Source: Chloroflexota bacterium (GTDB taxonomy: Bacteria; Chloroflexota; UBA6077; JACCZL01). From it: a DNA stretch of 30,706 nucleotides. The position numbers were made by a program, and so were the translations under genes. The notes under the pieces were generated by a model. That model was not told the DNA's origin. It saw nothing but the letters and a program-made list of their open reading frames with translations, and did no database searches. The stretch lies in NCBI GenBank assembly GCA_020845495.1, contig JADLFM010000164.1:1-30706 (forward strand), read 5' to 3'. Below are positions 54-22,858 of the stretch, in pieces (the stretch's first letter is position 1; each line of letters starts with the position of its first letter).

Positions 54-125
54 GGCGAGGTAGCTCAGCGGTAGAGCAGGGGACTCATAAGCCCTTGGTC
101 GGGAGTTCGAATCTCCCCCTCGCCA
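54..125 (+). tRNA. tRNA-Met (anticodon CAU)
   Basis: A complete cloverleaf can be folded. The acceptor strand GGCGAGG (54-60) pairs with CCTCGCC (118-124), followed by discriminator A125. The D arm is GCTC/GAGC and the T arm GGGAG-TTCGAAT-CTCCC. The anticodon loop CTCATAA carries CAT at 86-88. CCA is not encoded, since the following bases are CCG. The anticodon stem has one A-G mismatch next to the loop (A83 opposite G91). CAU could also mark tRNA-Ile2 after lysidine modification, but the arm sequences look like an elongator tRNA-Met. An integrase gene lies about 120 bp from its 3' end, the usual arrangement of a tRNA used as an attachment site. Confidence 0.93.
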
Positions 126-127
126 CC

Positions 128-245
128 GCCTCTCCTGGTCGAGACCAAAAGCCCCTGGTCTCCCAAAGTACCTTTGGTCTCAGTGCCCAAGTAATTCTTT
201 CTCGAGTGACCAGGGGACTGTTTTTCCCTTTGGTCCGGTTGCGCT
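128..245. other. Putative att / integrase arm-site region
   Basis: This short non-coding stretch between the tRNA 3' end and the integrase stop codon is dense in GACC/GGTC repeats. GACCAAAAGCCCCTGGTC (143-160) is nearly the inverse of GACCAGGGG...TTTGGTC (208-235), and another TTTGGTCTC lies near 173-181. The segment CAGGGGACT at 211-219, followed by CCTTTGGTC, copies the tRNA anticodon arm (CAGGGGACT at 77-85, then CCTTGGTC). This suggests integrase binding sites or an old attachment-site duplication. The exact att core cannot be fixed without the other end of the element. Confidence 0.5.
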
Positions 246-1241
246 TCAAATCGGCGCGTACCGGGGCATCCGCTTTGCCGCCTCGGACTGCCGCACCTGG
301 CCCGCGTACCGTCGAGTCATGGTGTTCGATGCGTGCCCGAGCATTTCCTGCACGGTCCCGATCTCGGCGCCTCGCTTCAGAGCCGTCTGGGCGAATCCAT
401 GACGGAACAGATGCCAGTGCATCCGGACGATGCCACAGCGCACCCGTAGGCGCTTCATGATCGAATGGGCGCCCCAGTACGTCAGCGGCCGGCCGTTCGA
501 TTGAAGCCACAGAGGAGCATCCTCGGGATACTTCCTGCGATACGACAGGTACGCCCTGACGTACTTCATTCCTCCCTCTGAGATCCAGGCCTCACGCTCC
601 TTGTTGCCCTTCGCTCGGATGCCCCGAATCTGCCCGGTCCGGATGTTGAGGCTCGAGAACGGCAGTTCAAGCACTTCGCGAAGCCTCAATCCCGTCGAGA
701 TGTAGACCGCCACCAGGGCGCGGTTGCGGGCGTCCTCCCAGTTCGGGAGGTCGAAACAGTTCAACACTGTCTCGATCTCCTCCTCGGTGAGCACCTGGGC
801 CGGCTTTTCTGGCGGGATGATGCGAGGAATCTTGAGCAGCAGGTCCCGCGTCGTCAGCTCAGCGTGCTTGTAGATGAATCTATTGGTGAAGACCTTCACC
901 GCGCCGAGTCTGGAAGCGATGCCGTCCTCGGCTCGACCCATCTTCCTCTGCTCCTGAATCCAGGTGTTGATGGCCTGGGGAGTCACGGACTCCAGAATCA
1001 GTGGTAGCGTCTGTCGTTCCAGGCTCCGTGTCATCGAGAGCAGCGCCTTCCGGTACTTGTCGATGGTGTGCTGCGACACCGGCTGTGAGCGGCCGCTCAG
1101 ATGGTCCATGTACTCAGCGATCAGCTGGGACAATGACTCCTGAGCGAATGATGGATCGACCCAGGTGTGTGCCGGATGCTTCACCTCCATGCCTTTCGTG
1201 GCAGGAACCGCCTGTTCCGCACTCAGTCTACGGCGAACCAT
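246..1241 (-). CDS. Tyrosine site-specific recombinase (integrase)
   Basis: The 331-aa protein belongs to the phage-integrase/XerCD family, which cuts and rejoins DNA through a covalent 3'-phosphotyrosine. An N-terminal SAM-like core-binding domain spans about residues 35-130. The catalytic domain shows the full set R186 (STGLR), K211 (AKGN), H277-x-x-R280 (HLFRH), H303 (LGH) and Y312 (RRYAG). The start at 1241 was chosen because GGGAGG lies just upstream. The reading frame is open further upstream but would run into the 3' end of the neighbouring gene. Its C-terminus faces the tRNA-Met gene, so it probably integrates and excises this element there. It is separated from the transfer operon by about 145 bp and may have its own promoter. 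Confidence 0.93.
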   Translation of the reverse strand: MVRRRLSAEQAVPATKGMEVKHPAHTWVDPSFAQESLSQLIAEYMDHLSGRSQPVSQHTIDKYRKALLSMTRSLERQTLPLILESVTPQAINTWIQEQRKMGRAEDGIASRLGAVKVFTNRFIYKHAELTTRDLLLKIPRIIPPEKPAQVLTEEEIETVLNCFDLPNWEDARNRALVAVYISTGLRLREVLELPFSSLNIRTGQIRGIRAKGNKEREAWISEGGMKYVRAYLSYRRKYPEDAPLWLQSNGRPLTYWGAHSIMKRLRVRCGIVRMHWHLFRHGFAQTALKRGAEIGTVQEMLGHASNTMTRRYAGQVRQSEAAKRMPRYAPI

Positions 1242-1386
1242 GCTGCCTCCCACAAGGCCAGGAAGGTGAGCCTTCCGATCATTGATGTCGAGCGCGGTGG
1301 TCGCGTTGTCATGACGTACGCCCCCTTGATGACCTTGGGATTGGTGCCGGAATGGACGTGTGGCCGCAGAGGTGGCCCGCTCCGCG

Positions 1387-3183
1387 TCATACCCTCGACG
1401 CACCAGGTGGCCACCGTCGTCGCGCCGCGTAGGCATCGTGAGGCTCTCGCCAGATCGGGCCAAATAGGCCATCAGGGTTGGTGGGATCACCAGTGATCCG
1501 CCACTCGCAGGTGAGGAGCAGCGGCAACACGAGAGCACGCCCTACGGATGCAGCACGAGCAGATCGCGCGATCCGCTCCTCACTCTTGCTGTCGGTCGTC
1601 ACGACCAGGATGGTCGGGAAGCCGTCGTAGTCCTGCTCGAAAGCGCGGCTGTCACGGTAGTCGTAAAAGCCGGCCCACTTCTCGGCGTAGTCGCGGGCGC
1701 TCATCGTGCCGCGGTCGTACTCCAGGAAGAACCCATGCAGCTCCCCGTGATGACGGACCATGCCATACCCATCCGGCCGCACCCGCCGCCGACTGCACGC
1801 CGAGGTGCTCCGCCACTCTAGGATGGCGTCGCTACCCGCTCCGGGCATGGCGCCGTATCTACGGAACAGGCCCACGAAGTGCGCATCCGCGCCAAGCGTG
1901 TGAGCCAGATCTCGCAGCAGCAGGCGGCGGATTCCGGTCGGATGTTCGGGGCCGCCGCCAGCCAGCCCGTTGAAATGGACGGCACGGGCGAGGCTGAGGC
2001 CCTGTTGACCCGCGACGATCTCCAGGCCGGCTTCGGTCAGCTCCGTCAGGTCATCCGGTGTCGACCAATGACGCTCGTCGACACGCAGAAGTCGCATAAG
2101 GCCAAGCCGGATCAGTCGAGCACGTCGCTCCCGGACGCGACGGACGTCCCACCCGAGCACGTCGGCCAGACTGTCCGCGGGCAGGAACGGATGGCGCCCG
2201 ACCAGGTCGAGCAGGAGTCGCTCCACAGGTTTCACCTCCAGCACCAGGCTCGCCGTGCCCCCATCGGACGAGCCGCGCTGGAAGACCGTCCCAACCGGTC
2301 GGGGAATCCGGCTGCCGGGTTGCCTCTCACCAAGCGGCCGAAGTCTCGGATCGCGGATGCCGAGTGTCGATGCCGGTCGCGTGGCGCTGGCCGCGTCGCT
2401 GAGCGCGCGGCAGTCGACGAGCAGGTCGCGCCAGGTCGCGAGGTGAACGACCAGCGGCGCACTGCCACGGGACCGCGCCACGTCATCGAGCAGCCGAACC
2501 CAGGCGGACCGCCGGGTATCGGTGGTGGCGACGATGAGCGTCGGCAGGGTGCTGCCACTGACTCGGCTGAGTGCCTGCAAGTGTCCGATGGCCGGACGGT
2601 AGGCGCGCAGCGGGAAGGTCGCCAGATCCGGCACCAGGACGAGCTCGGCAGCCTGCTCCGCCCAGGTCAGGGCAGCATAAGCCGGCAACTCGATCGAGAT
2701 CGGCGCCTTGCGGGTCGGGCGACGAAGCCGTCCCCGCCACGGCTGTTCCCAGGCGATGAGCCTGGCTCGCCCCGTCCGTACGCCCGCGACCGCGACGAGG
2801 AGCTGATATGCTGCGAGCAGGTGCGGTAGGCCGGGCAGGCGCGCCAGGAGATCGGGGCCACGCAGACGCGCTCGTCGGGCCAGGTACGCTGCATCGACCT
2901 GTCGGTCGACGGCTATCGTCGCGATGCCCAGGTCGGTCAGGTAGAGCAGGCCGGGATTTCGTCCAACTCTGAATGCCAAATGGATCTCATCGACCAGTCC
3001 CATGGCACGGAGCCGGGCCAGGCGGCGGTAGACTGGGGCGCCGGCCCGAGCTCCGTCCAGCCGCTCAATGGCTCCTTCCCAGAGGAGCGGGAGATGCGTC
3101 AGCAGTCGGAGCGTGCGTCGGTCTCCGTCGGTCAGGCGCTCGGCGGCTCCCACGGCGTCTCGCCAGCGAACCTGTTCGGTCAT
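1387..3183 (-). CDS. Replication-relaxation (Replic_Relax) family protein
   Basis: This 598-aa protein has two winged-helix-like segments, one near residues 20-100 and one near 325-395 (LLLDLVGRHPFLPADSLADVLG). They are followed by a C-terminal region of the Replic_Relax type containing RPDGYGMVR, FFLEYDRGTM and KWAGFYDYRD. Family members occur on plasmids and conjugative elements of Gram-positive-type bacteria, usually beside the coupling ATPase. They are thought to act in DNA processing, but the biochemistry is poorly established. The ATG overlaps the stop of the upstream ATPase gene (ATGA at 3180-3183), so the pair is translationally coupled. As no classical relaxase gene is visible, this protein is the best candidate for a DNA-recognition or relaxase-like role, which is inference. 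Confidence 0.75.
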   Translation of the reverse strand: MTEQVRWRDAVGAAERLTDGDRRTLRLLTHLPLLWEGAIERLDGARAGAPVYRRLARLRAMGLVDEIHLAFRVGRNPGLLYLTDLGIATIAVDRQVDAAYLARRARLRGPDLLARLPGLPHLLAAYQLLVAVAGVRTGRARLIAWEQPWRGRLRRPTRKAPISIELPAYAALTWAEQAAELVLVPDLATFPLRAYRPAIGHLQALSRVSGSTLPTLIVATTDTRRSAWVRLLDDVARSRGSAPLVVHLATWRDLLVDCRALSDAASATRPASTLGIRDPRLRPLGERQPGSRIPRPVGTVFQRGSSDGGTASLVLEVKPVERLLLDLVGRHPFLPADSLADVLGWDVRRVRERRARLIRLGLMRLLRVDERHWSTPDDLTELTEAGLEIVAGQQGLSLARAVHFNGLAGGGPEHPTGIRRLLLRDLAHTLGADAHFVGLFRRYGAMPGAGSDAILEWRSTSACSRRRVRPDGYGMVRHHGELHGFFLEYDRGTMSARDYAEKWAGFYDYRDSRAFEQDYDGFPTILVVTTDSKSEERIARSARAASVGRALVLPLLLTCEWRITGDPTNPDGLFGPIWREPHDAYAARRRWPPGASRV

Positions 3184-6198: not shown

Positions 6199-7297
6199 GG
6201 TGCTCCTCCGTCCTGGCACTTCCCATGCGGGCAGCGCTGAGCAGGCGATAGAACCAGTCGCGTCCGTGGGGACGGAGGCCGAGCTCATTGAGATCGGTCC
6301 CATCCGGCAGGCGGAGCGGCCGCCAGCGATCGCCGAGCTGCACGCCGAAGCGCGCGGCCGCCTCGTCGCCGGCGGCGTCGCCGTCGAAGACACCGAAGAC
6401 GCGCTCAGCTCGAGCCAGGAAGCCGAGCCGCTCAGCCGGGATGTGTGTCCCGCACGGGCTGAAGGCCGGCAGTCCCCAGCCCACTGCCGTCAGGTAGTCG
6501 AAGACCCCTTCGCAGAGCACGGCCTCCTTCCGCCCGACCGCCCGCTCGAATCCCAAGACCGGCCGCTCACCCCCAAGGGCCAAGTACTTCGGACGGTCGG
6601 AGCCGTCATCGAGACTTCGGCCGATCATCCAGATGGTCTGGCCGCCACGAAGCTCCGGCACGACGATCCTGCCGACCAGGACGTCACGAAGGGCCGAATC
6701 CGGTCCTCGACGTCCAGTTCGCTGGATCAGTCCAAGCTCCTGAGCGACTTCCAGGCCGCGCCGGGTCCGAAGGAACTGGGAGAGGGAGTCGCCATCGGCG
6801 TAACCAAGCCAGCAGCGCCGTATGACCCAGTCCGGGATGCCACGATCTCGCAGGTAGGCCAGGGCGCGCGGCTCGCGCCAGAGCGTGTGGTGGTAGACGG
6901 CGCCGGCCATGTTCATGGCCACCTGCTCCGTCAGCGTGAGGCGATCCCACCGTCGGACCCGCTCAGATCTCTGCGGCGCTGACACTCGGGCCGCCGGTCG
7001 GGTGGACCGTGGAAGCCCGATCAACAGGTCGCAGGCGGCGGAGAAGCTGAGGCCGTCGCGGCGCATCACCCAACTGATGACGTCGCCGTGCGCCCGACAG
7101 CCGTAGCAGTGGAAATGCTCGTCCCGCTCGTCGACGACGAGCGACGGCCGGCGATCATCATGGAAGGGGCACAGACCTTTGAGGCTGCTCGGGCCGGCTC
7201 GGACCAGCCGCACCCCGCTCATCGCGACCACCTGGGCGAGCGGATGGGCCCGCTTGAGCGCCTCGACGTCATGGCGGCGGTGGAAGACGGTGGCCAT
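6182..7297 (-). CDS. DnaG-type primase with CHC2 zinc finger and Toprim domain
   Basis: This 371-aa protein is a compact DnaG-like primase. The CHC2 zinc-binding domain shows C43-x2-H46 and C64-x2-C67 (CPFHDD, CYGCRAHGD). The Toprim domain has the catalytic E263 (CEGVFD) and the acidic pair D305/D307 (FDGDAAGDEAA). It lacks the C-terminal helicase-interaction domain of chromosomal DnaG and is shorter than the roughly 600-aa housekeeping enzyme. ATG 7297 overlaps the VirB4 stop codon in TGATG and is preceded by GGGAGGAG. On conjugative elements such primases prime complementary-strand synthesis of the transferred single strand; that role here is inferred from context. Confidence 0.9.
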   Translation of the reverse strand: MATVFHRRHDVEALKRAHPLAQVVAMSGVRLVRAGPSSLKGLCPFHDDRRPSLVVDERDEHFHCYGCRAHGDVISWVMRRDGLSFSAACDLLIGLPRSTRPAARVSAPQRSERVRRWDRLTLTEQVAMNMAGAVYHHTLWREPRALAYLRDRGIPDWVIRRCWLGYADGDSLSQFLRTRRGLEVAQELGLIQRTGRRGPDSALRDVLVGRIVVPELRGGQTIWMIGRSLDDGSDRPKYLALGGERPVLGFERAVGRKEAVLCEGVFDYLTAVGWGLPAFSPCGTHIPAERLGFLARAERVFGVFDGDAAGDEAAARFGVQLGDRWRPLRLPDGTDLNELGLRPHGRDWFYRLLSAARMGSARTEEHRGYAQ

Positions 7298-9186
7298 CAG
7301 ACTCCTCCCGGAGAACCGAGCCGTCGGCGCGGCGCGGCCGATCGAAACCTCGACTCGCCCATCGCTGCGCTCCCTCCCGTTGCCTCGGCTGACCGTTCGG
7401 CGAGCTCGCGCGGCGCGGTTGTGACAAGGCGGTGCTCGGCCGGGCTCGCCTCGATCTTCAGCGCGACGTGGCTGCCACGCGCGAAGAACAACCCCTCCCC
7501 TTTGGCAGCGGCCAGCAGGAACTGCCGCTCGTCGTCCGAGAGCTGGAAGGCGCCGATGACCGGCTGGATCGTGGCCGCGTCCTGCTTCATGAGCAGCTTG
7601 ATCGCGGCGTTCGCCAGCACCGTTCGCCCGTGCTCGGCGTCGAGGAAGTCGGCCACGTCCTGAGTGATGGTGACGAGACCCAGGTAGTACTTGCGCGCGC
7701 GCCGGGCCATCCCGGCGAGGAAGGCCCCTCCTTCCGCGTACTGCATCAGCGACCAGGCCTCGTCGATGATCAGCAGCCGCGGCCGACGCGAGCGACGCAC
7801 CTGGTTCCAGACGAAGGTCGTGATCAGGTGGATGCCGAGCGGTCGCAGCTCCGGCTCCAGGGCCTGGACGTTGAAGACGACGAACCGCCGGTCGAGAGCG
7901 ACATCGGTTGGCGCGGCGAAGAGGCCGGCCAGGGAGCCGCCGACGTAGCGCTCCAGGCGGGTGGCGAGGTCGGCTGCCGTCTCGCCCGACTCGCCCGTGA
8001 GCATGGCCAGAAGGTCGCGCATCAACGGAACGGGTCGACTGTGGGTGGCCGGGTCCGCGTCGATGCCCTTCGCGGCGTAGGTGCGGTACAGGGCACGGTC
8101 GAGGAGCGCCCGCTCGTAGGAGCCGAGCGGCCGGCCTTGCTCTGCCAGCATGATCTCCAGCAGCCCGAGCAAGGCGGCCACCTGCTCCGCCAGCGGGTCG
8201 CGGCCCTCCCAGTCGTCGTCGGGAGGCGACAGGTCGAACGGGTTCAGGTGCTGGGCCGACGAACTGGCGAGGCGGACGTACTGGCCGCCAACGGCGTCGC
8301 AGAGCGTCCGGTACTCGTCCTCCGGGTCGATCACCAGGAAGTCGATGCCGAATAGCAGGTTCCGCAGCGCCATCAGCTTGGTGAAGTACGACTTGCCGGC
8401 GCCCGACTTGGCGAAGACGACGGCGTTGGCGTTCTCCAGGCTCGGGTCGAAGGGATCGAAGATGACTGGCGATGCGTTGTGCCTGGCGATCCCGTAGAGC
8501 ACCCCGCACTCCATTGTCAGCGTGCTGGAGGAGAAGGGGAACGTCGTCGCGAGCGAGGAGGTATCGAGGTTGCGGGAGACCAGCAGATAGTCTTGTCCCT
8601 CCGGCAGGCAGGAGCGGAAGCCGGCATCCTGCTCGAGGATCGACACCCGCGAGTGCGCGAGCATACCGTCGAGCGTGACCTCGACGCGGCGCGTCAGATC
8701 GTCGAGGGTGGCCAGCGACCTGGCGCGCAGCAGGACGTATAATCCCACCGAGAAGACCTTCTCTTCGCCCCGCTGGAGGGCGTCGCGTAGCCTCTCGGCA
8801 TCCTCGTAGGCAACCTCGCGCTCCGGGTCGGCCAAGCGGCCACCGCGCGCCTCAAGCAGACGCGAAGAATGCAATTGCACCATCTTGTGGGTGAGTGTCG
8901 TGACCATCTGTCCCGTCTCGAGTGGGAGCAGGTGGAGGCTCAATTCGAGTGGCTCTTCGAAGTCGATCAGCGGCTGGAGCCAGCCCGGACCGACGGTGCG
9001 CGGGTAGCCCGTCACGGCAAGCGTTCGGGCGTACTGGTAGTCGAGGCGGACGTGGTCGCGGGCGACTTCGAGGACGGCGGGCGCGACCAGATCGGCAAGC
9101 GAGCGCGTGCCGAGGGCGAAGCGCCGCTCGTCGGCGCTCAGTCCGTGCTGAGGTGCTCCATTGCGTCGGATCTTCAGGAGCGGCAT
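7297..9186 (-). CDS. VirB4-family conjugation ATPase
   Basis: The 629-aa protein is the VirB4/TraC-type ATPase that powers assembly of the type IV secretion channel at the inner face of the membrane. Its N-terminal domain (about 1-230) carries the family pattern around the VGLYVLLRA segment. The motor domain has Walker A AKSGAGKS (259-266), the VIDPEDEY motif (285-292), Walker B LLIIDEAWSLM (471-481) and the TQD sensor (508-510). ATG 9186 overlaps the preceding stop (TGATG), with AAGGG upstream. Its position between the TraC-like gene and the primase is typical of PrgI/VirB4 modules in Gram-positive-type elements. Confidence 0.93.
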   Translation of the reverse strand: MPLLKIRRNGAPQHGLSADERRFALGTRSLADLVAPAVLEVARDHVRLDYQYARTLAVTGYPRTVGPGWLQPLIDFEEPLELSLHLLPLETGQMVTTLTHKMVQLHSSRLLEARGGRLADPEREVAYEDAERLRDALQRGEEKVFSVGLYVLLRARSLATLDDLTRRVEVTLDGMLAHSRVSILEQDAGFRSCLPEGQDYLLVSRNLDTSSLATTFPFSSSTLTMECGVLYGIARHNASPVIFDPFDPSLENANAVVFAKSGAGKSYFTKLMALRNLLFGIDFLVIDPEDEYRTLCDAVGGQYVRLASSSAQHLNPFDLSPPDDDWEGRDPLAEQVAALLGLLEIMLAEQGRPLGSYERALLDRALYRTYAAKGIDADPATHSRPVPLMRDLLAMLTGESGETAADLATRLERYVGGSLAGLFAAPTDVALDRRFVVFNVQALEPELRPLGIHLITTFVWNQVRRSRRPRLLIIDEAWSLMQYAEGGAFLAGMARRARKYYLGLVTITQDVADFLDAEHGRTVLANAAIKLLMKQDAATIQPVIGAFQLSDDERQFLLAAAKGEGLFFARGSHVALKIEASPAEHRLVTTAPRELAERSAEATGGSAAMGESRFRSAAPRRRLGSPGGV

Positions 9187-9854
9187 CAGGAGCCCTTTCC
9201 ATTGGTTGTCCCGGCCTGGACGACCAGGGTGGTGTACTCGGCGAGATCGCGCCGCAGGCGCTGGACGCGCGACAGCTCGGGGCACCAGCAGGCGTAGTAG
9301 AGCTGCGCCAGCTCGTTGCTGCTGAGGCGGCGTGCGGCGAGCCCGCAGCGGCCGATCTGGCGTTCGACCTCCTCGCAGCGGATGACGAGCTGCTTGCGAG
9401 CGGCGGCGGTGTCGCGACCGATACGTCCGCGACCGAATGTCCAGCCCCGACGCGAGCGAGTCGCCTCGGTCTCGGCCGGCACGACGAGGTAGAAGTGGCG
9501 CTCGAGCAGAGTGCGGTTGCGGGCGAGTCGGCGGACGAAGGCGACGTGATCGCGTGCGAGCGCGGCCAGGTTCTCGGGCAGCTCGTTGCGGGCGCGCCGC
9601 TCCAGATCGCCGATGTAGCCGTCGACGTCGACCGGGAGCACTCGCACCAGGATCTGGATCGGGAAGCTCAGGCTGTTCAGGAAGGCCGCGAAGCCCCCCA
9701 CTAGCGACTCCTGATCAGTTTCGCCCTGGAGCCCGAAGTGGACGCCATTGACTTCGAGCACGGCGCGGTACTGGCCTCGGGCCAGAAGCACGACGTCGTC
9801 CGCGATCTCTTCCAGGCTCAGGCGGCTGGTCTGCACCGAAGCACGACGGCTCAT
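9186..9854 (-). CDS. TraC-like conjugation protein
   Basis: This 222-aa soluble protein matches the small TraC-like protein that regularly sits between PrgI and VirB4. The diagnostic stretch is the N-terminal part, with a YRAVLEVNG strand followed by FAAFLNSLSFPIQI and a VDVDGY element (about residues 30-85). Comparable sequence forms the N-terminus of fused VirB4/TraC proteins. The rest (about 95-220) is helical and arginine-rich. ATG 9854 overlaps the PrgI stop (ATGA) and is preceded by GGAGGAG. It probably works as a partner or detached N-terminal domain of the VirB4 ATPase; the exact role is not established. Confidence 0.75.
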   Translation of the reverse strand: MSRRASVQTSRLSLEEIADDVVLLARGQYRAVLEVNGVHFGLQGETDQESLVGGFAAFLNSLSFPIQILVRVLPVDVDGYIGDLERRARNELPENLAALARDHVAFVRRLARNRTLLERHFYLVVPAETEATRSRRGWTFGRGRIGRDTAAARKQLVIRCEEVERQIGRCGLAARRLSSNELAQLYYACWCPELSRVQRLRRDLAEYTTLVVQAGTTNGKGS

Positions 9855-11517: not shown

Positions 11518-11675
11518 CAGCGTCCTCCCGTCGATCGGCCACGGTTGCCGGCGAGGACACGGACTCCTTTTCGTGAGGCGTCATGGTGGACGAGGCCAAG
11601 GCCGCCGCTGAGACCGTGCAGCAGCGGTTCGGATCGAACGCGAGCTCCCACGACGCTCGTGAACGGTAGCTGCAT
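11517..11675 (-). pseudogene. Chimeric remnant: start of propeller gene joined to end of TrbL-like gene
   Basis: This 52-codon frame begins MQLPF, exactly as the propeller protein at 17210, with the same GGAGGGTCAC ribosome binding site. It ends GRSTGGR, matching the TrbL-like C-terminus GRSTGGS. Just upstream, GLGLVHHDASRKGVRVL aligns with GLGFVRYYVYRQGARAL. The simplest reading is a duplicated propeller-TrbL pair that lost everything between the first five codons and roughly the last thirty. Its stop overlaps the hydrolase ATG, so it may survive as a translated leader that couples hydrolase translation. DNA around the two stop codons is also alike (26 of 30 bases by eye). Confidence 0.72.
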
Positions 11676-11764
11676 AGATGTGACCCTCCATGGCTGAGAT
11701 CGACGTCAGTGCGCCGAGGCCAGCCTACGGAGGCCCGGTTTCACGACAGCTACTTGGCGGCTAC
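11660..11764. repeat. Leader repeat, copy A (105 bp)
   Basis: This block matches 17195-17321 at 99 of 105 aligned bases by eye; the other copy has one extra 22-bp unit. It spans the first codons and ribosome binding site of the chimeric frame and continues upstream through GGTTTCACGACAGCTACTTG. It probably carries the promoter or leader of both operons. The repeated unit, read on the minus strand as TGTCGTGAAACCGCCAAGTA, also resembles the multiple terminal repeats of IS21-family elements, so part of the block could be an IS end. Confidence 0.85.
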
Positions 11765-12007
11765 ACGGGAGCTACTTTTCGGCAACTTGGCAAAGCGGTG
11801 GTGTTTCGCACCGACCGGCGTCCATGCCATACGGTCGACCGATACCGAGTAACCAGGAGCCAGCTGCGAGGCCACACGTTTGCACTGTCGGTGAAAGACC
11901 GGGAACTCTGGCGAGGTTTGGGCCACAATCGGGGATTGTTCTCATCGCCTCGCCAGGTAGCGAATGAAGGATGGCCTCTATCAGGTGAAGGAAGTGGCAA
12001 CGCAGGC

Positions 12008-14644: not shown

Positions 14645-14707
14645 CTCGACTCGGAGAAGGCGGCAACCGGGGAAGGTGAGAGCGAACGCGAGGATGACGC
14701 GCGCCGT
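14645..14707 (-). pseudogene. Relic of a second cell-wall hydrolase gene (5' end)
   Basis: Directly after the TrbL-like stop codon, where the other copy of the block has the hydrolase ATG, the sequence reads ACG and continues as T-ARVILAFAL. This aligns with M-ARVLVALAL at the start of the intact hydrolase at 11517. The flanking DNA is also similar. Similarity fades within about 20 codons, so only the 5' tip of a lost hydrolase gene remains. It is one of two clues to a duplicated propeller-TrbL-hydrolase block. Confidence 0.6.
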
Positions 14708-15759
14708 CAGCTTCCTCCCGTCGATCGTCCTCCCTCTCCTTCGAGGGCACGCGCACCCTGTCGATAGACGTAGTAGCGGACGAAGCCAAGGCCGTCGCCG
14801 ACGTGGTTGCGCATCAGGCTGGGGATCTTGAGCGTCAGGGCGAGGACGGCCACGCCGAGAAAGACGCTGAGTAGCGCGGCATCAGGTGACATCGGCGCCA
14901 GCTCCGTCAGAAGCGAGCCCCCAAGCTTCAGCGCGAGCACCTGGACGAACTGGGTGAAGACTACCCCAAAGAACGTGCCCGACCAGAGGCGTGCCCAGCC
15001 CTGCGTCTGCGGGAGCACCCAGCAGAGCAGGCCGAGCGGCGCGGCGACCAGGAGAACGTCGATCAAGGCAAGTCGCATCAACATCTGCAGAAGGAGCATC
15101 AGCCCGGTGACGAGGTAGATGAGGATCGCGATGACGTCGACCAGCAGCTGGGTTGTGCTGTCGACACGCTCCCAGGCCGGAAGCGCGACCTCGCCGATCC
15201 CCTGGCAGAGCGCGTTGTTGACGTCGATCGCGAGCTGCGCCCAGCTCAGACTGGTGTTCGCGAGCAGCGCCCCGATGACCAGCCGCGGTACCAGCTCCAT
15301 CGCCTCGTGGTAGGGCGCGCCGATCTGCTCTCGGACGATCAAGTTGAAGCCGCCCCAAAGTGCCACGATCGCCAGGCCGGCGTTCATGACGGTACGAACG
15401 GCCTCCCAGAGCGTCTTGACCGTCGGACTGTCATAGGTACCGGCCGGTGGGGTCTGGGTGATGAAGTTGAGCGAGCTGCCCATGACGCCGTCGACGACGC
15501 CACGGATTGCGTCCGAGATGCCCTGGAGCAGGGAGACAAGCACCTGATTGAAGACATCGGAAGCCCAGGCCTTCGGGTCGGGCAGGAAGCCGGAAAATGG
15601 GCCGGGTGCACCGGCCGGTGGGTTACCTTCCGGCTCGGGTGTCGCCGTTGGTGTTGCCGTTGGAGGCGTCTCCTGGGCGTGCGCTGGCAACGGGATAGTC
15701 GCTGTGAAGCTCAAGACGAGCATGAAGATCAGCAGGACGAGCGCACAGGCGGTCCTCAT
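14707..15759 (-). CDS. VirB6/TrbL-like polytopic channel protein
   Basis: The 350-aa protein starts with a signal-peptide-like segment ending near AHAQ (residues 1-30). A Pro/Thr-rich stretch follows, then about six hydrophobic helices between residues 105 and 320, including the paired helices around LLLQMLMRLALIDVLLVAAP. This is the VirB6/TrbL layout of the inner-membrane channel. The C-terminus GLGFVRYYVYRQGAR to GRSTGGS is repeated in the chimeric frame at 11517-11675. ATG 15759 overlaps the stop of the propeller gene (ATGA) and has GGAGG upstream. It normally works with PrgI and VirB4, here encoded about 5 kb away across the scrambled interval. Confidence 0.82.
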   Translation of the reverse strand: MRTACALVLLIFMLVLSFTATIPLPAHAQETPPTATPTATPEPEGNPPAGAPGPFSGFLPDPKAWASDVFNQVLVSLLQGISDAIRGVVDGVMGSSLNFITQTPPAGTYDSPTVKTLWEAVRTVMNAGLAIVALWGGFNLIVREQIGAPYHEAMELVPRLVIGALLANTSLSWAQLAIDVNNALCQGIGEVALPAWERVDSTTQLLVDVIAILIYLVTGLMLLLQMLMRLALIDVLLVAAPLGLLCWVLPQTQGWARLWSGTFFGVVFTQFVQVLALKLGGSLLTELAPMSPDAALLSVFLGVAVLALTLKIPSLMRNHVGDGLGFVRYYVYRQGARALEGEGGRSTGGS

Positions 15760-17210: not shown

Positions 17211-17321
17211 AGACGTGACCCTCCGTGGTTGAGATCGGCGTCAGTGCGCCGAAGCCAGCCTACGGAGGGCCGGTTTCACGACAGCTACTTGGCGGTTTCA
17301 CGACAGCTACTTGGCGGCTAC
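17195..17321. repeat. Leader repeat, copy B, with a 22-bp tandem duplication
   Basis: This is the partner of 11660-11764, differing at six positions. It carries a tandem duplication of a 22-bp unit containing GTTTCACGACAGCTACTTGG (17271-17292 and 17293-17314). It covers the start codon and ribosome binding site of the propeller gene and extends about 110 bp upstream, so it may hold that operon's promoter. The flanking interval 17322-17511, up to the metallopeptidase stop, has no recognisable gene. Confidence 0.9.
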
Positions 17322-17511
17322 ATGAGAGATGCTTTCAGGCAGGAACAAAATCGCTCAGTGAAATGCAGTCATCTCCGACCTCACGACACCGAACAACCGA
17401 TTTCCGGTGATCGGACGGTGAGGGGCCAGCCTCGGCTCATCTCGGAAGGTGGGGCAGAGTTCTGTGGCCGACAGTAGGCGACGCGATCGCTGCTACCGGC
17501 CACGGCCCAGA

Positions 17512-18678
17512 CTAACTTCGCAGTTGCCGAGCCTCGAGCTGTCGGAGCTGCTCCGTCTCCCATGTTGCATACGTCGTCGGATCTGAATCGTACGCTTGCC
17601 AGGCGGCTGCGCAAAGAGCGACAGGCGACTCGAAGTTGCGCCAGGCGTCACCCTCGCACGATTCATCTTCGGAGAATCGCCGCGGGTCCACTTCAGTCAC
17701 CATGTCTTCGATGAGGAGCGCTACCGCCTCCTCGAGACTATCATCGTAGAAGCCGTGGAAGTCGGTTGTGACTCCGAGTGCCTGGGCAACTGACTCCCAC
17801 TCCGACCTAACGCGGGCTGCAAGCTCGTCGAACCCTGCAGCCTCAGCTCGCCGCGCCAGGAAGTGCACGCGCAACGCGGTCACTGGATGATGGCTGCCAG
17901 CCATCTGTTCCGCCGACTGAGAGAAATCATTTGCGTCGAACCTACTCAGGAACGTCGTGAACGCGAGGAGGAACGACGGTCCTCCGATGTCGAAGCCGAC
18001 GGCATCGCAGAACAGCTCCTGGGCCCAGCGGTACCAGACGCGAACGATTAGTCTCCGGCGCGCCGCCTGCCGTTGGGCATAGCGGTCATTCCGCTGCGAG
18101 GCGGGGAGCAGGGTGTCCTCCACCTCTCGTTGAAGCTCACCGACCAGATCGTCCAGTTCTGGCTTATGCTTCGCATACAAGAGGTGGCCAAACTCGTGAA
18201 AGAGGAGCGGCTGAAAGAGGAGTCCGCGCTGTTCGATCGATGGGAAGAAATAGACTGGAACCAGGTCGACGAGCGGCAACATCGCTACGTCGCCGTCACA
18301 CATCGCCGGGGCATACGCGCCGGTCTGTAGATGGGACGTGTGCAGCCATCCAAGTATCCAGAGGCAAACAAAGTCTGAGGACTTTGCCCGCAACACGGGG
18401 GTGGCGAGCTGGGAGCTCAAGAAGCCGACCAGATCGACCGCGAGATTCGTGTCGCTCAAGATGTCGGGCAGGATCGAGCTCGTGCCGAGTTGAAGATATT
18501 GCAGGTTCCGCTCGATCCTGACCTGCTGCTCGTGGCAGAGTTCTGCGATGCGATCACGGTAGAGACTGAGCGCGGAGGGTACCCGAGCGGCGCTGATCAG
18601 GTCAATCAGCGTCCGGACGTCGGCCAGCAGGCCAATGTTCCGACGCTCAAGAACCGCCCGAACACGCGTCCAGGTCAC
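17512..18678 (-). CDS. HEXXH zinc metallopeptidase of the Argonaute operon
   Basis: The 388-aa protein carries H161EFGH165, the zinc-binding and catalytic motif. About 55 residues later comes E221LFCD225 with GFDIGGPSFLLAF, the likely third zinc ligand in a gluzincin-type arrangement, and then HHPVTALR near 263-270. This order (HEXXH, ExxxD, GP, HP...R) recurs in an uncharacterised group of bacterial metallopeptidases. There is no signal peptide and no clear membrane helix, so it should act in the cytoplasm. Its ATG overlaps the stop of the 148-aa gene (ATGA at 18675-18678), making it the last gene of the Argonaute operon. It may be a proteolytic effector or may process another member; the substrate is unknown. 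Confidence 0.78.
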   Translation of the reverse strand: MTWTRVRAVLERRNIGLLADVRTLIDLISAARVPSALSLYRDRIAELCHEQQVRIERNLQYLQLGTSSILPDILSDTNLAVDLVGFLSSQLATPVLRAKSSDFVCLWILGWLHTSHLQTGAYAPAMCDGDVAMLPLVDLVPVYFFPSIEQRGLLFQPLLFHEFGHLLYAKHKPELDDLVGELQREVEDTLLPASQRNDRYAQRQAARRRLIVRVWYRWAQELFCDAVGFDIGGPSFLLAFTTFLSRFDANDFSQSAEQMAGSHHPVTALRVHFLARRAEAAGFDELAARVRSEWESVAQALGVTTDFHGFYDDSLEEAVALLIEDMVTEVDPRRFSEDESCEGDAWRNFESPVALCAAAWQAYDSDPTTYATWETEQLRQLEARQLRS

Positions 18679-19121
18679 CGTCCGCCAATCTGGATCGGTG
18701 TGGACGGCGCAGGCACGGTCACCAACGTGCGCAGCTCCTGTAGGCCGGCAACAAGGCGAGGGAGATCCTCCTCGCGATCCGATTCGATCAACGTGGGGAG
18801 CTCGGTAAGGAGCCGAGGGGCCTCGCGCCTGCCATGCTCACGGACCTGACGAGATAGGAACCGGCCTGCTACGTCACCCAGTTGTGGGTCGGCCCCGATC
18901 ACGACCCCGGTGCTCCCGGTCTCCCCAAGGACAGCCTGGAGCCGCCCCAGGAAGCTCGACAAACGGCGACGCGCCTTCTGAACGTCGTCGATCGGCGTCG
19001 GGTCGTCGACGCCATCCAGCAGGAGCTTGGCATGGATCGACAACGTGTTGATCGCCGAGGCTACCTCGTGCGCCTGCTCGAAGGTAGAGGCTGCGAGCCA
19101 GTCATTTCTTGTTGCCATCAT
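18675..19121 (-). CDS. Uncharacterised helical protein of the Argonaute operon (148 aa)
   Basis: No known domain is recognised. The sequence looks mostly helical: HEVASAINTLSIHAKLLLDG and DVQKARRRLSSFLGRLQAVL are amphipathic, and a second helical part covers about residues 85-135. A central glycine-rich GSTGVVIGAD separates them. AAAGGAG precedes two consecutive ATG codons (19121 and 19118); the second has the better spacing. It lies 33 bp after the Argonaute stop and overlaps the metallopeptidase start. Its position suggests an adaptor between the Argonaute and the peptidase, or an inhibitor of the latter; both are inference. Confidence 0.75.
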   Translation of the reverse strand: MMATRNDWLAASTFEQAHEVASAINTLSIHAKLLLDGVDDPTPIDDVQKARRRLSSFLGRLQAVLGETGSTGVVIGADPQLGDVAGRFLSRQVREHGRREAPRLLTELPTLIESDREEDLPRLVAGLQELRTLVTVPAPSTPIQIGGR

Positions 19122-19154
19122 CGACTCCTTTCGCGCGATCCGCGCCCGAACGGG

Positions 19155-21464
19155 CTAGCGAAGCCGCCGAATATCCCGGGCGGCGTGGGCCTTCAGGTCT
19201 TCGTCCGTCCGCTTCAGAGCGATGTGCATGCGTTGGGCGACGCGGGGATTCGACCAGTTCAATTGGGCGCCGAGGTGCGTCGCTCGTGCCGCATCGACCA
19301 CCGATCGACATCGACCGTTGCCCTCGATGAGGTACGGCTCTGCGGTACCTTGTCGTAGGGTCGCTGCCCCAGTGCTGGTGACGAGCACGCTCCGATCGTT
19401 CAGGAGGATCGCCTGGCCCTCCAACGCGTTATCAACGCTCCCGTCAGCGTAGGTCTCCCAGAGGCGCAGGGACTTCAGCGTATCCTTGTGGATCTCGACC
19501 ACATCGACTCTGGCATCAGGAGAAAGCTTTCCACGATCTTGCAGTCGCACGACGGCCTCGTCGATGGCAGGTCCCTCCTGTCCGCAGAGTCGTCCATCCC
19601 GCAGGACCAGGAGCGATGTGAGCGCCTGTGCCGGTCGTCGCACAACTTGATCGATGATGTCGAAGATCCGATCTCTGAGCATCACCTGGTTGACCGACTC
19701 GTGCTGGTGGTCGGCTTTCGGGTAGACCTCGGTCCTAAGACAAAATGGCGGCGCCTGGCCTTCGCCGCGAGAGACGAGCAACGACAGAGCGAAATGACGT
19801 CGGTTGTACCCCACGTCGATGACGAGGTGGGCTTCGTACGGTCCCAGATCGGTCGCTCGGAAGGGCACTGCGTCAATGAGCTGCAGCACCTCCAGCGCAT
19901 TCTGGGTCACAAATCCTCGCCAGCGTGAGGAGCCCAGAGTTTTGCTGTGTTCGCGGCGACGATGATCCCAGGCACCCTCGCGGAGCTGCTTGTAATGGCG
20001 GCAGAGCACTCGTTCGGTGATGCGCTTGACACGCCAGTCGTCGAGTTGGAAGGCGACTTCGTGATAAGCCGTAGGCTCGTCGTTCAGCACGAAGACGAGC
20101 ATGCCTCCCTGGTCTCGCTCACGGAGCTGGGCAATCGCATCTGTGACGTCGTCATAGGGAACCGTGACGGCTTCGATTGGATGTCGCGTCCAGGTTGACA
20201 ACGCTTGAGCTAGATCGCCCGCCAGATTGTTTGCTACCGGTTCGCCGATGTGGCGTGGGTAGGCACAGTAGAGCGTGCGCGGCATTGACGGCGGAGCGGC
20301 ATGGCAGCCGGCAACCTCGATCGTCTGGGCACGGCGACGATAGTGCTCTCGATATGCTTCAATCGTCTCGCGCTCTGGTGGGTCGAGGCGACGTCCGCGA
20401 CCGAACAGGAGTGGCGGCGGAGCCAATCGTATCACTCGCTCCGGCGGTGGGCACCAGAACCCTTCGGCCAGGCCCGGCGCGATATGGCCGAAGGGCCGAC
20501 GGCCGAGCCGGTCCCAGAAAGCCTCAATCAGGTCGCGGCGCTCGGCCGGCGCGATCTTATCGATCTCTCCGAGCTCGTGGGGGACATTGTCGTTCATGAC
20601 CCGCACTCGAACGCGATTGGCTGCGACAGGCTGGGGAAACCTGATGCTAGGGAAGGAGACCCGTACGACAGCCATCTCGGGGGAAACTACCAGATCGGGA
20701 TTGTCGGCTCGATAGTAAGCGATGAGCGAGGGGTAGCTTCTCCCTCGGACGCGGATCGAACCTGTGGTCGCGCAGGTGAGACCTGGTGCGGGGGCCTCGA
20801 AATAACACTTCACCCGGGACCGACCGTTGTCGTAGAGCAGCGTGCCCTTTTGACCCTCCTGCCGACCAAGCAGCTCCTCGAGCCACCTCTCGCGCCGCTG
20901 CCGCTCATTGGTGTGGACGCGCTCGTCCAGGAAGTAGCTCAACGGCCGTGAAGTGAAGAATGCGGTGCCGATGTCAACCGCAACGCCCACACCTACGTCT
21001 TGGACGAGCACGGTCGAGAGCTCAAAGCGGCGATACGCGGCGATTCCGGCCTCCTCGCAGAAGGGCTCGGCTTCGTACCAGATTCTTGGACTGTCGAGGG
21101 TCCAGAGGTCGGTTCGCCGAGCGACCTGAGCGAGGAGCGCTCGTTCGACCAGGGGAAGTAGGACGGCCTCCGATTCGGGCTCGTCAAGCGTCAGCCGGCG
21201 AGTCGGGTCGCCAGCATCCGCCACGTCGAGCTCCCAGTCTTCGGCAGCGAGGTGGAGTCGTTCCGCTGGCTGCGTGCCCGCGATGATCAACGACGGAGCG
21301 GCGTCCGGGGCCGGCGTCGCCGCAATTCCATGCCGGTGGCGCAGCGTGTTGCACACCCTCTGGAGAAGATCCGGCGTGATGTTTGGCCCTTCGACTCGCG
21401 CACGGCGCGTCGAGATGTACAGTGAGGAACCAGGAGCGACGACCCGGATGTTTGTCTCAAGCAT
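19155..21464 (-). CDS. Long prokaryotic Argonaute (pAgo)
   Basis: The 769-aa protein has full-length Argonaute architecture. An N region (1-190) is followed by a PAZ-like region (about 200-275, with SYPSLIAYYRADNPDLVVSP), MID (about 395-540) and PIWI (about 545-769). PIWI shows D550 (LVIDVG), a candidate glutamate finger E589 (HES) and D623 (LRDGRL), so slicing is plausible. The fourth ligand cannot be fixed; D754/D756 are candidates. In MID, alignment by eye gives Y467, A471, K480 and L529 at the positions of the usual Tyr-Lys-Gln-Lys 5'-phosphate pocket, so only the tyrosine remains. The start overlaps the nuclease gene by 8 bp. pAgos use short guides against invading DNA or RNA; this one is probably plasmid- or phage-directed cargo. 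Confidence 0.9.
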   Translation of the reverse strand: MLETNIRVVAPGSSLYISTRRARVEGPNITPDLLQRVCNTLRHRHGIAATPAPDAAPSLIIAGTQPAERLHLAAEDWELDVADAGDPTRRLTLDEPESEAVLLPLVERALLAQVARRTDLWTLDSPRIWYEAEPFCEEAGIAAYRRFELSTVLVQDVGVGVAVDIGTAFFTSRPLSYFLDERVHTNERQRRERWLEELLGRQEGQKGTLLYDNGRSRVKCYFEAPAPGLTCATTGSIRVRGRSYPSLIAYYRADNPDLVVSPEMAVVRVSFPSIRFPQPVAANRVRVRVMNDNVPHELGEIDKIAPAERRDLIEAFWDRLGRRPFGHIAPGLAEGFWCPPPERVIRLAPPPLLFGRGRRLDPPERETIEAYREHYRRRAQTIEVAGCHAAPPSMPRTLYCAYPRHIGEPVANNLAGDLAQALSTWTRHPIEAVTVPYDDVTDAIAQLRERDQGGMLVFVLNDEPTAYHEVAFQLDDWRVKRITERVLCRHYKQLREGAWDHRRREHSKTLGSSRWRGFVTQNALEVLQLIDAVPFRATDLGPYEAHLVIDVGYNRRHFALSLLVSRGEGQAPPFCLRTEVYPKADHQHESVNQVMLRDRIFDIIDQVVRRPAQALTSLLVLRDGRLCGQEGPAIDEAVVRLQDRGKLSPDARVDVVEIHKDTLKSLRLWETYADGSVDNALEGQAILLNDRSVLVTSTGAATLRQGTAEPYLIEGNGRCRSVVDAARATHLGAQLNWSNPRVAQRMHIALKRTDEDLKAHAARDIRRLR

Positions 21465-22464
21465 CAGCGACCTGGCTCCCTTCTGGACAGGCCCGTTGGA
21501 ATCGGCAGCCGTTGCAGATCGCCGCCTTCAAGCACGGCGAAAAGGCCTCGACGACGCCGCGCTGACCGTAATCATGAAGTGTTGCCATGCGCTCGGCATC
21601 CTGCACGATGAGCGCGCGAGCGGCTCTGAGCACTGGTGCGTCCGCCCGGAAATCGACGACTTCTCGCGAACCTAGCTGCGCCTTACACACACGCAGGTTG
21701 TCCGGGTCGCAGGCGAACTGCTCGAGCGCCCATAGAGCGTATACGGCCAACTGGAGACTGTCATCACCTGATCCGTCGCTGCTGCCCATCTTCCAATCGA
21801 CGACGGTGACGCCCTGTTCGTCTCGGAAGGCGAAATCAACTCTCCCTTCGACACGGCAGGGGAGCTGGCCCACCAGACGCATCGATGTCTCGATAGTTGC
21901 CTCACTGTCAGCGGCGGCCCGGCGAAACTTCGCGAACGATCCGTCCAGGGCGAATGTTGTGAGCGCGGCCATCATCCGCTCTTCGGTCTCCTCGCAGAGG
22001 TCCTCGGCCCGTGGATCGCGGTAGTGAAACTCACGCAGGAGAACCGGTGGGTAACGGACGGCGGGGTCGGTGTGCGCGCCGTCGGGATGAGCGCGCGAAA
22101 ATGCGCAATCTGCGTCGAAGAGCCGGTGTGCCCACCCTTTGAGGCGTTCCAAGCCCGGCTCGGCACCCCTTTGTACCTCCCGAAGGTACCAACTAATGGC
22201 GAGGTGGAGAATGCTCCCGGCCCGCTCGTGGCGCGTCGAGACGCCCTTAAGAAAGTGGAGATCGTCCTTGTTGGCGACGATCTTGGCGGTACGGCGATTG
22301 GCGCCGTAGTAGGTGTAGTAGTAGCGTCGAGCGCACTGTTCGAGGGTCGATCTGCGGCTATGGGACCAGATGATCCTGGTCAATCGCTCGCGAAGCGGAA
22401 CCATCGGCGAAGGTGTTTCGTCAGGAGCAAACAACTCCAACTGGAAGGGAGCACCTTTAGTCAT
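21457..22464 (-). CDS. Cas4/AddB-like PD-(D/E)XK nuclease with Fe-S cluster motif
   Basis: The 335-aa protein contains the complete RecB-family nuclease set: H87 (GSILHLAI), D210 (GRVDFAF), D223-W-K225 (VVDWKMG) and Q238...Y242 (QLAVYALW). A lone C44 (LEQCARRYYY) pairs with C317-x2-C320-x5-C326 (CNGCRFQRAC), the four-cysteine Fe-S pattern of Cas4 and AddB. Such enzymes degrade or trim single-stranded DNA ends. Its ATG overlaps the regulator stop (ATGA at 22461-22464), and its 3' end overlaps the Argonaute start, so the two are probably made together. It could generate or trim guides, or destroy targets the Argonaute marks. No cas1 or cas2 is present, so CRISPR adaptation is unlikely. Confidence 0.88.
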   Translation of the reverse strand: MTKGAPFQLELFAPDETPSPMVPLRERLTRIIWSHSRRSTLEQCARRYYYTYYGANRRTAKIVANKDDLHFLKGVSTRHERAGSILHLAISWYLREVQRGAEPGLERLKGWAHRLFDADCAFSRAHPDGAHTDPAVRYPPVLLREFHYRDPRAEDLCEETEERMMAALTTFALDGSFAKFRRAAADSEATIETSMRLVGQLPCRVEGRVDFAFRDEQGVTVVDWKMGSSDGSGDDSLQLAVYALWALEQFACDPDNLRVCKAQLGSREVVDFRADAPVLRAARALIVQDAERMATLHDYGQRGVVEAFSPCLKAAICNGCRFQRACPEGSQVADA

Positions 22465-22808
22465 CGGTCCCCTCCCCGTAGCCTGCCGAGCGTGCGTGCG
22501 AGGTCAGACCACTCATCCTCAGAGAGGCCCATCCTTTGGGCCTCACGCAGAAACTTTTGCGCGCTGGGGCTCGTGCTCACCGTCGCCTGAACCTCAGAGG
22601 GTATCTTGCCGGTAAGGGCGAGGAGCTCCTCAGGTGGGACGCCGAGGATGCTCGACAGCACGACCACCGTATCGGCGGCTGGCGGGGGGAGCCGATTGTT
22701 CTCGAGCTTGGAGATGTAGGAGAAGTCCAAGCTTGATCGCTCAGCCAGGTCTCGCTGTGTCAAGCCAGCGGCCCGGCGACGATCGCGTAGAACGGCTCCG
22801 AACGTCAT
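22461..22808 (-). CDS. XRE-family transcriptional regulator of the Argonaute operon
   Basis: The 115-aa protein has an N-terminal Cro/CI-type helix-turn-helix (LRDRRRAAGLTQRDLAERSSLDFSYISKLENNR, about residues 7-40) and a short C-terminal helical part. The ATG at 22808 gives this form. An in-frame GTG at 22817 lies at the expected transcription start and would give a leaderless message. It is the first gene of the five-gene operon, and an inverted repeat overlaps the promoter, so autorepression and control of the Argonaute operon are likely. Confidence 0.88.
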   Translation of the reverse strand: MTFGAVLRDRRRAAGLTQRDLAERSSLDFSYISKLENNRLPPPAADTVVVLSSILGVPPEELLALTGKIPSEVQATVSTSPSAQKFLREAQRMGLSEDEWSDLARTLGRLRGGDR

Positions 22809-22823
22809 TTCACTCACATCGTC

Positions 22824-22858
22824 ACCATAGCACGATGTTGAGTGGATAGTCAACTCAA
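22824..22858 (-). promoter_or_regulatory. Promoter and operator of the Argonaute operon
   Basis: On the minus strand TTGACT (22853-22848) and TATGGT (22829-22824) form a -35/-10 pair with an 18-bp spacer. The region is AT-richer than its surroundings. GTTGA...TCAAC (22837-22841 and 22850-22854) and the overlapping TTGAGT/ACTCAA repeat straddle the -35 box, a natural binding site for the XRE regulator. Confidence 0.6.

What the first reader, a model, noticed from the sequence alone, without database searches (positions are those of the whole stretch)
17512..22858. Five-gene Argonaute operon with Cas4-like nuclease and metallopeptidase
XRE regulator, Fe-S PD-(D/E)XK nuclease, long pAgo, a 148-aa unknown and an HEXXH peptidase are arranged head to tail. 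The first three genes and the last two overlap, and one promoter precedes the set. pAgo-nuclease pairs are known. A combination with a cytoplasmic metallopeptidase and a small partner, carried as cargo on a conjugative-type element, is not one I recognise as a described system. It could couple nucleic-acid sensing to proteolysis.
Basis: partly seen in the sequence, partly recalled or inferred. Interest (0 to 1): 0.93.

Follow-up and report, generated by a model that had tools for sequence, protein, structure and literature searches.

The report
Protease-armed Argonaute operon on mobile elements
Five neighbouring genes (a DNA-binding regulator, a Cas4-like nuclease, an Argonaute, a small protein and an unclassified HEXXH-motif protein predicted to be a protease) keep company in bacteria of at least eight phyla, and together they are likely an invader-sensing defence system that the protease would help to switch on.

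Summary
The five genes are in the window, head to tail, and are not a chance neighbourhood: the set, mostly in the same order, recurs in eight named phyla, and without the regulator in a ninth. One relative is the plasmid operon of Runella slithyformis, whose Argonaute is RslAgo, a characterised DNA-guided RNA slicer (D-R pAgo, PMC9360449). That paper describes the nuclease and the HTH or sigma-70 regulator; the parts I read do not mention the two downstream genes, which follow 5 of 5 full-length matches in 697 genomes and 5 of 5 plasmid relatives. The HEXXH protein matches no known family, yet keeps H161/E162/H165/E221/D225 in 85 of 85 aligned rows. New here: a palindrome over the -35 box of the predicted promoter, conserved in six phyla and found as an exact copy once per genome in 13 of 16 genomes, so the XRE protein very likely represses its own operon. 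I favour a CapH/CapP-like switch: the HEXXH protease relieves repression and releases a Cas4-like nuclease and a D-R-type Argonaute. Cleavage is untested, and an effector-protease reading is almost as likely. Novelty: a new variant of a known kind, with an unrecognised protease arm.

The parts
22824..22853 (-). predicted promoter: -35 TTGACT, 18 bp, -10 TATGGT; the -35 lies in the palindrome
   Evidence: Consensus scan finds 1 where 1.1 is expected by chance; conservation upstream of 16 of 16 window-type XRE genes gives it weight; located
22837..22854 (-). operator-like palindrome GTTGACTATCCACTCAAC
   Evidence: 1 mismatch to GTTGACNNNCAACTCAAC; GTTGA-N8-TCAAC in 14 of 16 upstream regions, at most 2 in 200 shuffled sets; exact copy once per genome in 13 of 16 genomes
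22461..22808 (-). XRE/HTH_31 regulator, 115 aa (reader: TTG start 22853)
   Evidence: Pfam HTH_31 1e-14, PADLOC capH 9.4e-10, PDB phage immunity repressor 8bny 1.1e-8 with the A7 profile; start
21457..22464 (-). Cas4-like PD-(D/E)XK nuclease, 335 aa; D210, D223, K225, Q238, and C44/C317/C320/C326 as in Fe-S members
   Evidence: Pfam PDDEXK_1 9.5e-17; PADLOC Aga_Cas4-like_Nuc 1.5e-18; residue counts
19155..21464 (-). long pAgo, 769 aa; tetrad D550/E589/D623/D754
   Evidence: PADLOC pAgo_II 4.7e-25; profile to VbAgo 1.2e-39 and PliAgo 7r8f 5.1e-29; tetrad 30 of 30
18675..19121 (-). 148-aa protein, predicted all-helical
   Evidence: No family; AlphaFold2 pLDDT 75, pTM 0.69, five helices; adjacent to the HEXXH gene in relatives
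17512..18678 (-). HEXXH protein, predicted metallopeptidase, 388 aa; H161 E162 H165 E221 D225, P265, R270
   Evidence: 85 of 85 rows keep these residues, 30 of 30 in the wider set; no Pfam, PADLOC or NCBIfam match, PDB nothing below E 0.16
54..1538 (.). mobile-element end: tRNA-Met 54-127 (+) and integrase 246-1538 (-)
   Evidence: ARAGORN; Pfam Phage_integrase 5.1e-28
7297..9285 (-). VirB4/TraG-like ATPase of the carrier element
   Evidence: Pfam P-loop_TraG 8.1e-21
14707..15759 (-). TrbL/VirB6-like transfer protein near the cargo
   Evidence: Pfam TrbL_4 1.1e-13

Best explanation
The window carries a five-gene operon (XRE regulator, Cas4-like nuclease, long Argonaute with an intact DEDD tetrad, 148-aa protein, HEXXH protein) that is likely a DNA-guided, RNA-targeting defence cassette in which the HEXXH protein is predicted to be a protease that would relieve repression by the XRE protein. 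Shown: the five-gene unit recurs across phyla with its active-site residues kept; a conserved palindrome covers the -35 box of the predicted promoter. Inferred, strong: the XRE protein binds that palindrome and holds the operon down. Inferred, moderate: the Argonaute, like its characterised relatives PliAgo and RslAgo, takes DNA guides and cuts RNA, with the Cas4-like nuclease making guides or cutting the invader. Inferred, weak: on infection or DNA damage the HEXXH protease, with the small protein as activator or brake, cuts the repressor (in sigma-70-type operons, perhaps the sigma partner), so that the set is made only when needed.
For: Same five genes in eight named phyla. Palindrome over the -35 in 16 of 16 window-type loci (14 strict), exact copy once per genome in 13 of 16, each by its coordinates at the cassette; a perfect palindrome at the same place in the divergent L022, and by eye GCTTGACATATCAAGC in L062 and GCTTGACA sites in L019, L028 and L063. 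XRE resembles CapH, ImmR and phage repressors; CapH and ImmR are switched by HEXXH proteases (PMC13373217, PMC10904395, PMC10233336; passages). XRE, small gene and HEXXH gene form one block in the permuted L028 and stay together where nuclease and Argonaute are absent (L019, L030, L034). Some relatives lie beside other defence-type genes.
Against: The HEXXH protein is not shown to be M78: hhalign 64-66%, resting on the HEXXH stretch. Regulator and protease are not always paired: L065 and L066 have sigma-70, in L064 none was found, in L031 and L036 the HEXXH gene is convergent with a pAgo and no XRE was found. In L019 and L030 a switch without nuclease and Argonaute would control nothing nearby. 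At one mismatch the operator pattern is not specific: a reversed control also hits 6 of 16 genomes. No cleavage, expression or defence was measured.
Confidence: 0.4

Rival explanations
1. Effector protease. Target RNA bound by the guide-loaded Argonaute activates the HEXXH protein through the small protein, and the protease destroys host or invader proteins (abortive infection or dormancy), analogous to RNA-triggered Craspase (recalled).
For: The HEXXH gene accompanies the Argonaute with XRE, with sigma-70, or with no such regulator found, and even convergent with it, so its commonest partner is the Argonaute. XRE, small gene and HEXXH gene persist as intact ORFs without nuclease and Argonaute, as a self-sufficient unit would.
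Against: The Argonautes keep a cutting tetrad (17 of 19) and most travel with a nuclease, so an extra killer is not needed; persistence after loss of the Argonaute suggests that it is not toxic unchecked.
Confidence: 0.35
2. Processing enzyme: the HEXXH protein matures or recycles the nuclease or Argonaute (activation cut, release of spent complexes).
For: Present beside 5 of 5 full-length Argonaute matches in 697 genomes and on 5 of 5 plasmids.
Against: Retained where both supposed substrates are gone (L019, L030, L034).
Confidence: 0.1
3. A previously described system, fully covered by the D-R pAgo paper, the two tail genes being unrelated passengers.
For: Core genes and regulator types match PMC9360449.
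Against: The HEXXH gene recurs in the same place down to about 20% identity and keeps its motif.
Confidence: 0.05
4. Non-catalytic scaffold: the HEXXH fold serves as a DNA or protein binding platform.
For: No activity data exist.
Against: H161/E162/H165/E221/D225 in 30 of 30 highly divergent proteins.
Confidence: 0.1

Closest known systems
D-R pAgo operons (PliAgo/RslAgo and PnyAgo/HpeAgo groups; Lisitskaya et al. 2022, PMC9360449; section 6 whole, other passages)
   Same: Long pAgo with DEDD tetrad, preceded by a Cas4-like PD-(D/E)XK nuclease, with an HTH regulator or sigma-70 factor; RslAgo's own plasmid locus has five genes in the window's order, the small one identified by position.
   Different: The window pAgo is 19% identical to RslAgo. 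The text read names no downstream genes and 'peptidase' occurs 0 times in the main text; I could not see its figures or supplements.
CapH/CapP switch of immune operons; ImmR/ImmA; DdrO/PprI (PMC13373217, PMC10233336, PMC10904395; passages)
   Same: XRE-type regulator at the head of the operon and a HEXXH protein in the same operon; a conserved palindrome over the promoter.
   Different: The HEXXH protein is not shown to be M78, and in most loci sits last with a small partner; cleavage is unknown.
Peptidase families M48 and M78
   Same: HEXXH, then E221xxxD225 and HPxxxxR laid out like M48 (register recalled, and seen in the hhalign alignment).
   Different: hhalign 1-5% to M48 and 64-66% to M78 on 12-51 columns; six weak Pfam hits among 20 members (best 0.0014), none to a peptidase.
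Long-B and short pAgo systems with toxic effectors (PMC10620215, passages)
   Same: pAgo with a co-encoded partner.
   Different: Those pAgos lack the catalytic tetrad; this one keeps it.

Membership tests
D-R pAgo operon | long pAgo related to PliAgo/PnyAgo | tested here: met
   Profile A1 hits PliAgo 7r8f at 5.1e-29, VbAgo 1.2e-39, 8xih 6.3e-24; other pAgos only at E 0.18 and above
D-R pAgo operon | DEDD tetrad | tested here: met
   D550/E589/D623/D754, 30 of 30, aligned with RslAgo
D-R pAgo operon | Cas4-like nuclease gene before the pAgo | tested here: met
D-R pAgo operon | HTH regulator or sigma-70 factor | tested here: met
   XRE
D-R pAgo operon | inside one of the two published groups | tested here: inconclusive
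   19% identity to RslAgo; no Argonaute tree was built
D-R pAgo operon | DNA guide, RNA target | not testable with these tools
   Needs biochemistry
CapH/CapP (ImmR/ImmA) switch | XRE-type regulator with a conserved palindrome over the operon promoter | tested here: met
   binding and repression not measured
CapH/CapP (ImmR/ImmA) switch | protease of the M78 (ImmA/IrrE) family | tested here: inconclusive
   No M78 hit in Pfam; hhalign 64-66% on the HEXXH stretch; no model obtained
CapH/CapP (ImmR/ImmA) switch | protease cuts the repressor, ssDNA stimulates | not testable with these tools
   Needs biochemistry
Peptidase_M48 | profile match | tested here: not met
   No M48 hit in Pfam; hhalign 1-5%
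abortive-infection pAgo (short, long-B) | catalytically inactive PIWI | tested here: not met
   Tetrad intact

The most novel reading that the evidence does not exclude
A protease-coupled Argonaute immune system: recognition of invader RNA by a DNA-guided Argonaute turns on a new family of metalloprotease through a small adaptor, so that guided nucleic-acid sensing is converted into protein cleavage, of its own repressor or of cell proteins, as a prokaryotic Argonaute counterpart of Craspase (recalled).
Probability: 0.3. Interest if true: 0.92.

Novelty: new variant of a known kind. Interest (0 to 1): 0.72.

Why it matters
The natural role of D-R pAgos, the DNA-guided RNA slicers, is left open in the 2022 paper (discussion passage). 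This work finds that operons of this type, RslAgo's among them, carry a small-protein and HEXXH-protein pair annotated as hypothetical, and in XRE-type loci a likely repressor site at the promoter. Both make the question testable in sequenced strains such as Runella slithyformis, Emticicia oligotrophica and Spirosoma oryzicola. If the protease acts, it would be a new family and perhaps the first protease arm of an Argonaute system.

Tried and rejected
The fold question was put instead to hhalign with M48 and M78 sequences from the genomes; the first run missed several frames and was redone, and one M78 locus (L052) still gave no sequence.

M48 membership was considered from the ExxxD and HPxxxxR layout and rejected on score. 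Chance neighbourhood was rejected. No sign of phage carriage: no relative in IMG/VR (two-pattern scans) or phage records. The window's own HEXXH protein and pAgo find no plasmid; the plasmids came from divergent queries. The TTG 22853 start was rejected.

Results against the reading: distant HEXXH relatives exist with no pAgo in the stretch fetched (G012, G074, G382, G494, G658, G1011). Two pAgos convergent with a HEXXH gene have lost a tetrad residue (L031, L036). The small proteins of the divergent loci are joined to the window's mainly by position: their profile comparison scored 12%, against 1% for a reversed control. The promoter scan alone is no better than chance. The operator pattern at one mismatch is unspecific.

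Full report
What is there. Five genes lie head to tail on the minus strand at 22853-17512. Consecutive gaps are -4, -8, +33 and -4 bp in the window and -19 to +43 bp in the ten further loci tabulated. The XRE start is better placed at ATG 22808: most homologues begin there, and the TTG at 22853 is part of the predicted promoter.

Proteins. XRE: HTH_31 1e-14; the best PADLOC family is capH, 9.4e-10 over most of its length; the A7 profile finds a phage immunity repressor, the CapH-type entry 7t5u (name recalled) and ICEBs1 ImmR among 13 structures. Nuclease: PDDEXK_1 9.5e-17 and Aga_Cas4-like_Nuc 1.5e-18. D210, D223, K225, Q238 and three cysteines are kept in 11 of 11 aligned rows and the fourth cysteine in 10 of 11. 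Argonaute: no Pfam hit, pAgo_II 4.7e-25. Its profile finds VbAgo (1.2e-39), PliAgo (5.1e-29), 8xih (6.3e-24) and 9wmd (6.8e-24), and nothing else below E 0.1. The tetrad D550/E589/D623/D754 is kept in 30 of 30 near relatives and 17 of 19 across the wide set. The 148-aa protein has no family; its model is five helices at pLDDT 75. The HEXXH protein has no match in Pfam, PADLOC or NCBIfam and no PDB match below E 0.16; six weak Pfam hits among 20 members are none of them peptidases.

Relatives. A scan of the 84,980-species genome collection with the Argonaute profile (two peptide patterns, so not exhaustive) gave 11 loci. 11 of 11 have the nuclease (L008 only a fragment, beside a transposase-like ORF, recalled); 10 of 11 have XRE (not L008); 10 of 11 have both tail genes on the contig. 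In the 11th, L009, the end of the small gene and the HEXXH gene open another contig of the same genome. The record titles name Desulfobacterales, Chloroflexi and Anaerolineales, Bacillota, Acidobacteria, KSB1 and Poribacteria. The L001 Argonaute has an in-frame stop. Flanking genes differ from locus to locus. Of 10 flank proteins that I chose from five loci, 9 had a PADLOC family at 1e-5 (Type III restriction-modification, Druantia-like, MkoA-like and others, some through widespread helicase or methylase domains) and 1 had none.

HEXXH searches by genome: Chloroflexota 5 of 400 (E up to 1e-5), then with the wider profile and E up to 1e-6 Acidobacteriota 5 of 297, KSB1 phylum 2 of 82, Desulfobacterales phylum 3 of 247, Poribacteria 8 of 84; also 1 of 29 in the family of G127 (the same genome again). 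Of these 23 genomes, 13 have nuclease and Argonaute beside the HEXXH gene (G001, G003, G005-G010, G127, G551, G613, G1077, G1082; order permuted in G613, nuclease a fragment in G008, two contigs in G009), 2 have only XRE, small gene and HEXXH gene (G770, G1062), 2 have a convergent divergent Argonaute (G923, G1052), and 6 have no Argonaute found in the stretch fetched. G006 has a second copy, of three genes (L019). In the reverse direction, the wide Argonaute profile finds 5 full-length matches among 697 genomes and all 5 have the tail genes; 3 further matches lie within the PIWI part, and their genomes had no HEXXH hit (against 42, 52).

Plasmids. The window's own HEXXH protein and pAgo find none. 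Divergent HEXXH queries find five plasmids (a further query finds four of them), and all five carry nuclease, Argonaute, small gene and HEXXH gene in the same order (the Emticicia nuclease is annotated hypothetical and was recognised by alignment; most small genes by position). Runella and Rhizobium have an XRE gene first; Spirosoma and Emticicia have a sigma-70 gene and a 180-aa protein; in the cyanobacterium no regulator was found. Argonaute queries return the same five, with three haloarchaeal partial hits. The Runella Argonaute, RUNSL_RS28805, is WP_013921749.1, the accession given for RslAgo in PMC9360449.

Operator. Upstream of XRE in 16 of 16 window-type loci (window, L001-L007, L009-L011, L027, L030, L033-L035) lies GAGTTGAC-NNN-CAACTCAACAT or a near variant, holding a TTGACA-like -35, followed by a TATAAT-like -10 (read by eye). 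The pair GTTGA-N8-TCAAC occurs in 14 of 16 and TTGA-N8-TCAA in 15 of 16; in 200 sets of Markov shuffles no pair of arms reaches more than 2 (five bases) or 4 (four bases) loci (related loci are not independent). In 16 genomes searched with up to one mismatch there are 27 sites; 13 genomes have an exact copy, one each, and by its coordinates each lies at the cassette promoter. The pattern read backwards gives 18 sites in 6 of 16 genomes, so inexact sites mean little; in G008 and G1062 the only sites lie elsewhere. L022 has a perfect palindrome of 10-bp arms at the same place; by eye L062 has GCTTGACATATCAAGC, and L019, L028 and L063 have GCTTGACA with weaker symmetry; in L064-L066 I saw no clear palindrome. 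This is the best evidence that the XRE protein represses its own operon; binding is not shown.

Evolution. In the HEXXH tree the two sigma-70 loci form one supported clade (100/99), and the three loci without nuclease and Argonaute fall in three places, each next to five-gene loci (L030 with L006, 96/89; L034 with L026 and L035, 99/98; L019 with L063, 98/90). They are thus likely losses. L034 still holds the start of the nuclease, with stop codons by eye. Long branches (L031, L032, L036, L028, L013, L066) make deeper parts unsure.

Mechanism. Shown by calls: gene set, order, residues, palindrome. From the literature: PliAgo, RslAgo, PnyAgo and HpeAgo use DNA guides to cut RNA in vitro (PMC9360449, section 6 read whole); CapP, ImmA and PprI cut XRE-type repressors, with ssDNA as signal for CapP and PprI (PMC13373217, PMC10233336, PMC10904395, passages). 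Inferred: the window Argonaute shares that specificity (19% identity to RslAgo), XRE represses, and the HEXXH protein relieves. The rival, an effector protease triggered by the Argonaute, is almost as likely, because the HEXXH gene follows the Argonaute under different regulators. E162A with and without forced expression separates the two.

Literature. Searches for pAgo with peptidase, protease, XRE or Cas4 and for the named Argonautes listed no paper whose title or abstract start describes this combination. Within papers, 'peptidase' and 'protease' occur 0 times in PMC6299218, PMC2743648 and PMC11442185; in PMC10620215 'protease' occurs once, in a reagent name; 'peptidase' occurs 0 times in PMC9360449. 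A passage of PMC2743648 reports Cas4-related nucleases beside three long pAgos. The library lacks most subscription papers, and figures and supplements were not seen, so Fig. 1b of PMC9360449 may draw the tail genes.

Setting. The window has a tRNA-Met beside an integrase, a VirB4/TraG-like ATPase, a replication-relaxation protein, TrbL, NlpC/P60 and a type IV prepilin peptidase, and G+C falls from about 0.67 to 0.62 over the cassette, as fits cargo on a conjugative-type element.

Noticed in passing
window 54-127 and 246-1538: A tRNA-Met gene lies beside an integrase gene at the window's edge, a likely integration site of the carrier element.
   Followed up: partly
window 11639-11789 and 17174-17324: A 151-nt direct repeat, 85% identical, the second copy about 190 bp past the end of the HEXXH gene; it may mark insertion points or shared leader regions.
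   Followed up: no
window 11690-13221 (+): ORF pieces in two frames read like a broken LuxR/MalT-type regulator (recalled, not searched).
   Followed up: no
L001 9585-9587: In-frame TGA inside the Argonaute gene of the Desulfobacterales genome, so that copy is broken or a sequencing error.
   Followed up: partly
L034 1934-2370: A nuclease remnant with stops runs into what looks by eye like the Argonaute's last residues, while XRE, small gene and HEXXH gene stay open.
   Followed up: partly
L032 4906-7258: A 150-aa gene and a distant HEXXH gene followed by a 210-aa protein that looks like a dCTP deaminase (recalled), no Argonaute found in the stretch; another possible use of the pair.
   Followed up: no
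L031 and L036: HEXXH genes convergent with divergent Argonautes whose tetrads lack E or the last D, hinting at inactive Argonautes with the same partner.
   Followed up: partly
L062 8450-10629 and L065 1-1605: Two of the plasmid cassettes lie next to multiubiquitin/ThiF genes, a bacterial ubiquitin-like operon.
   Followed up: no
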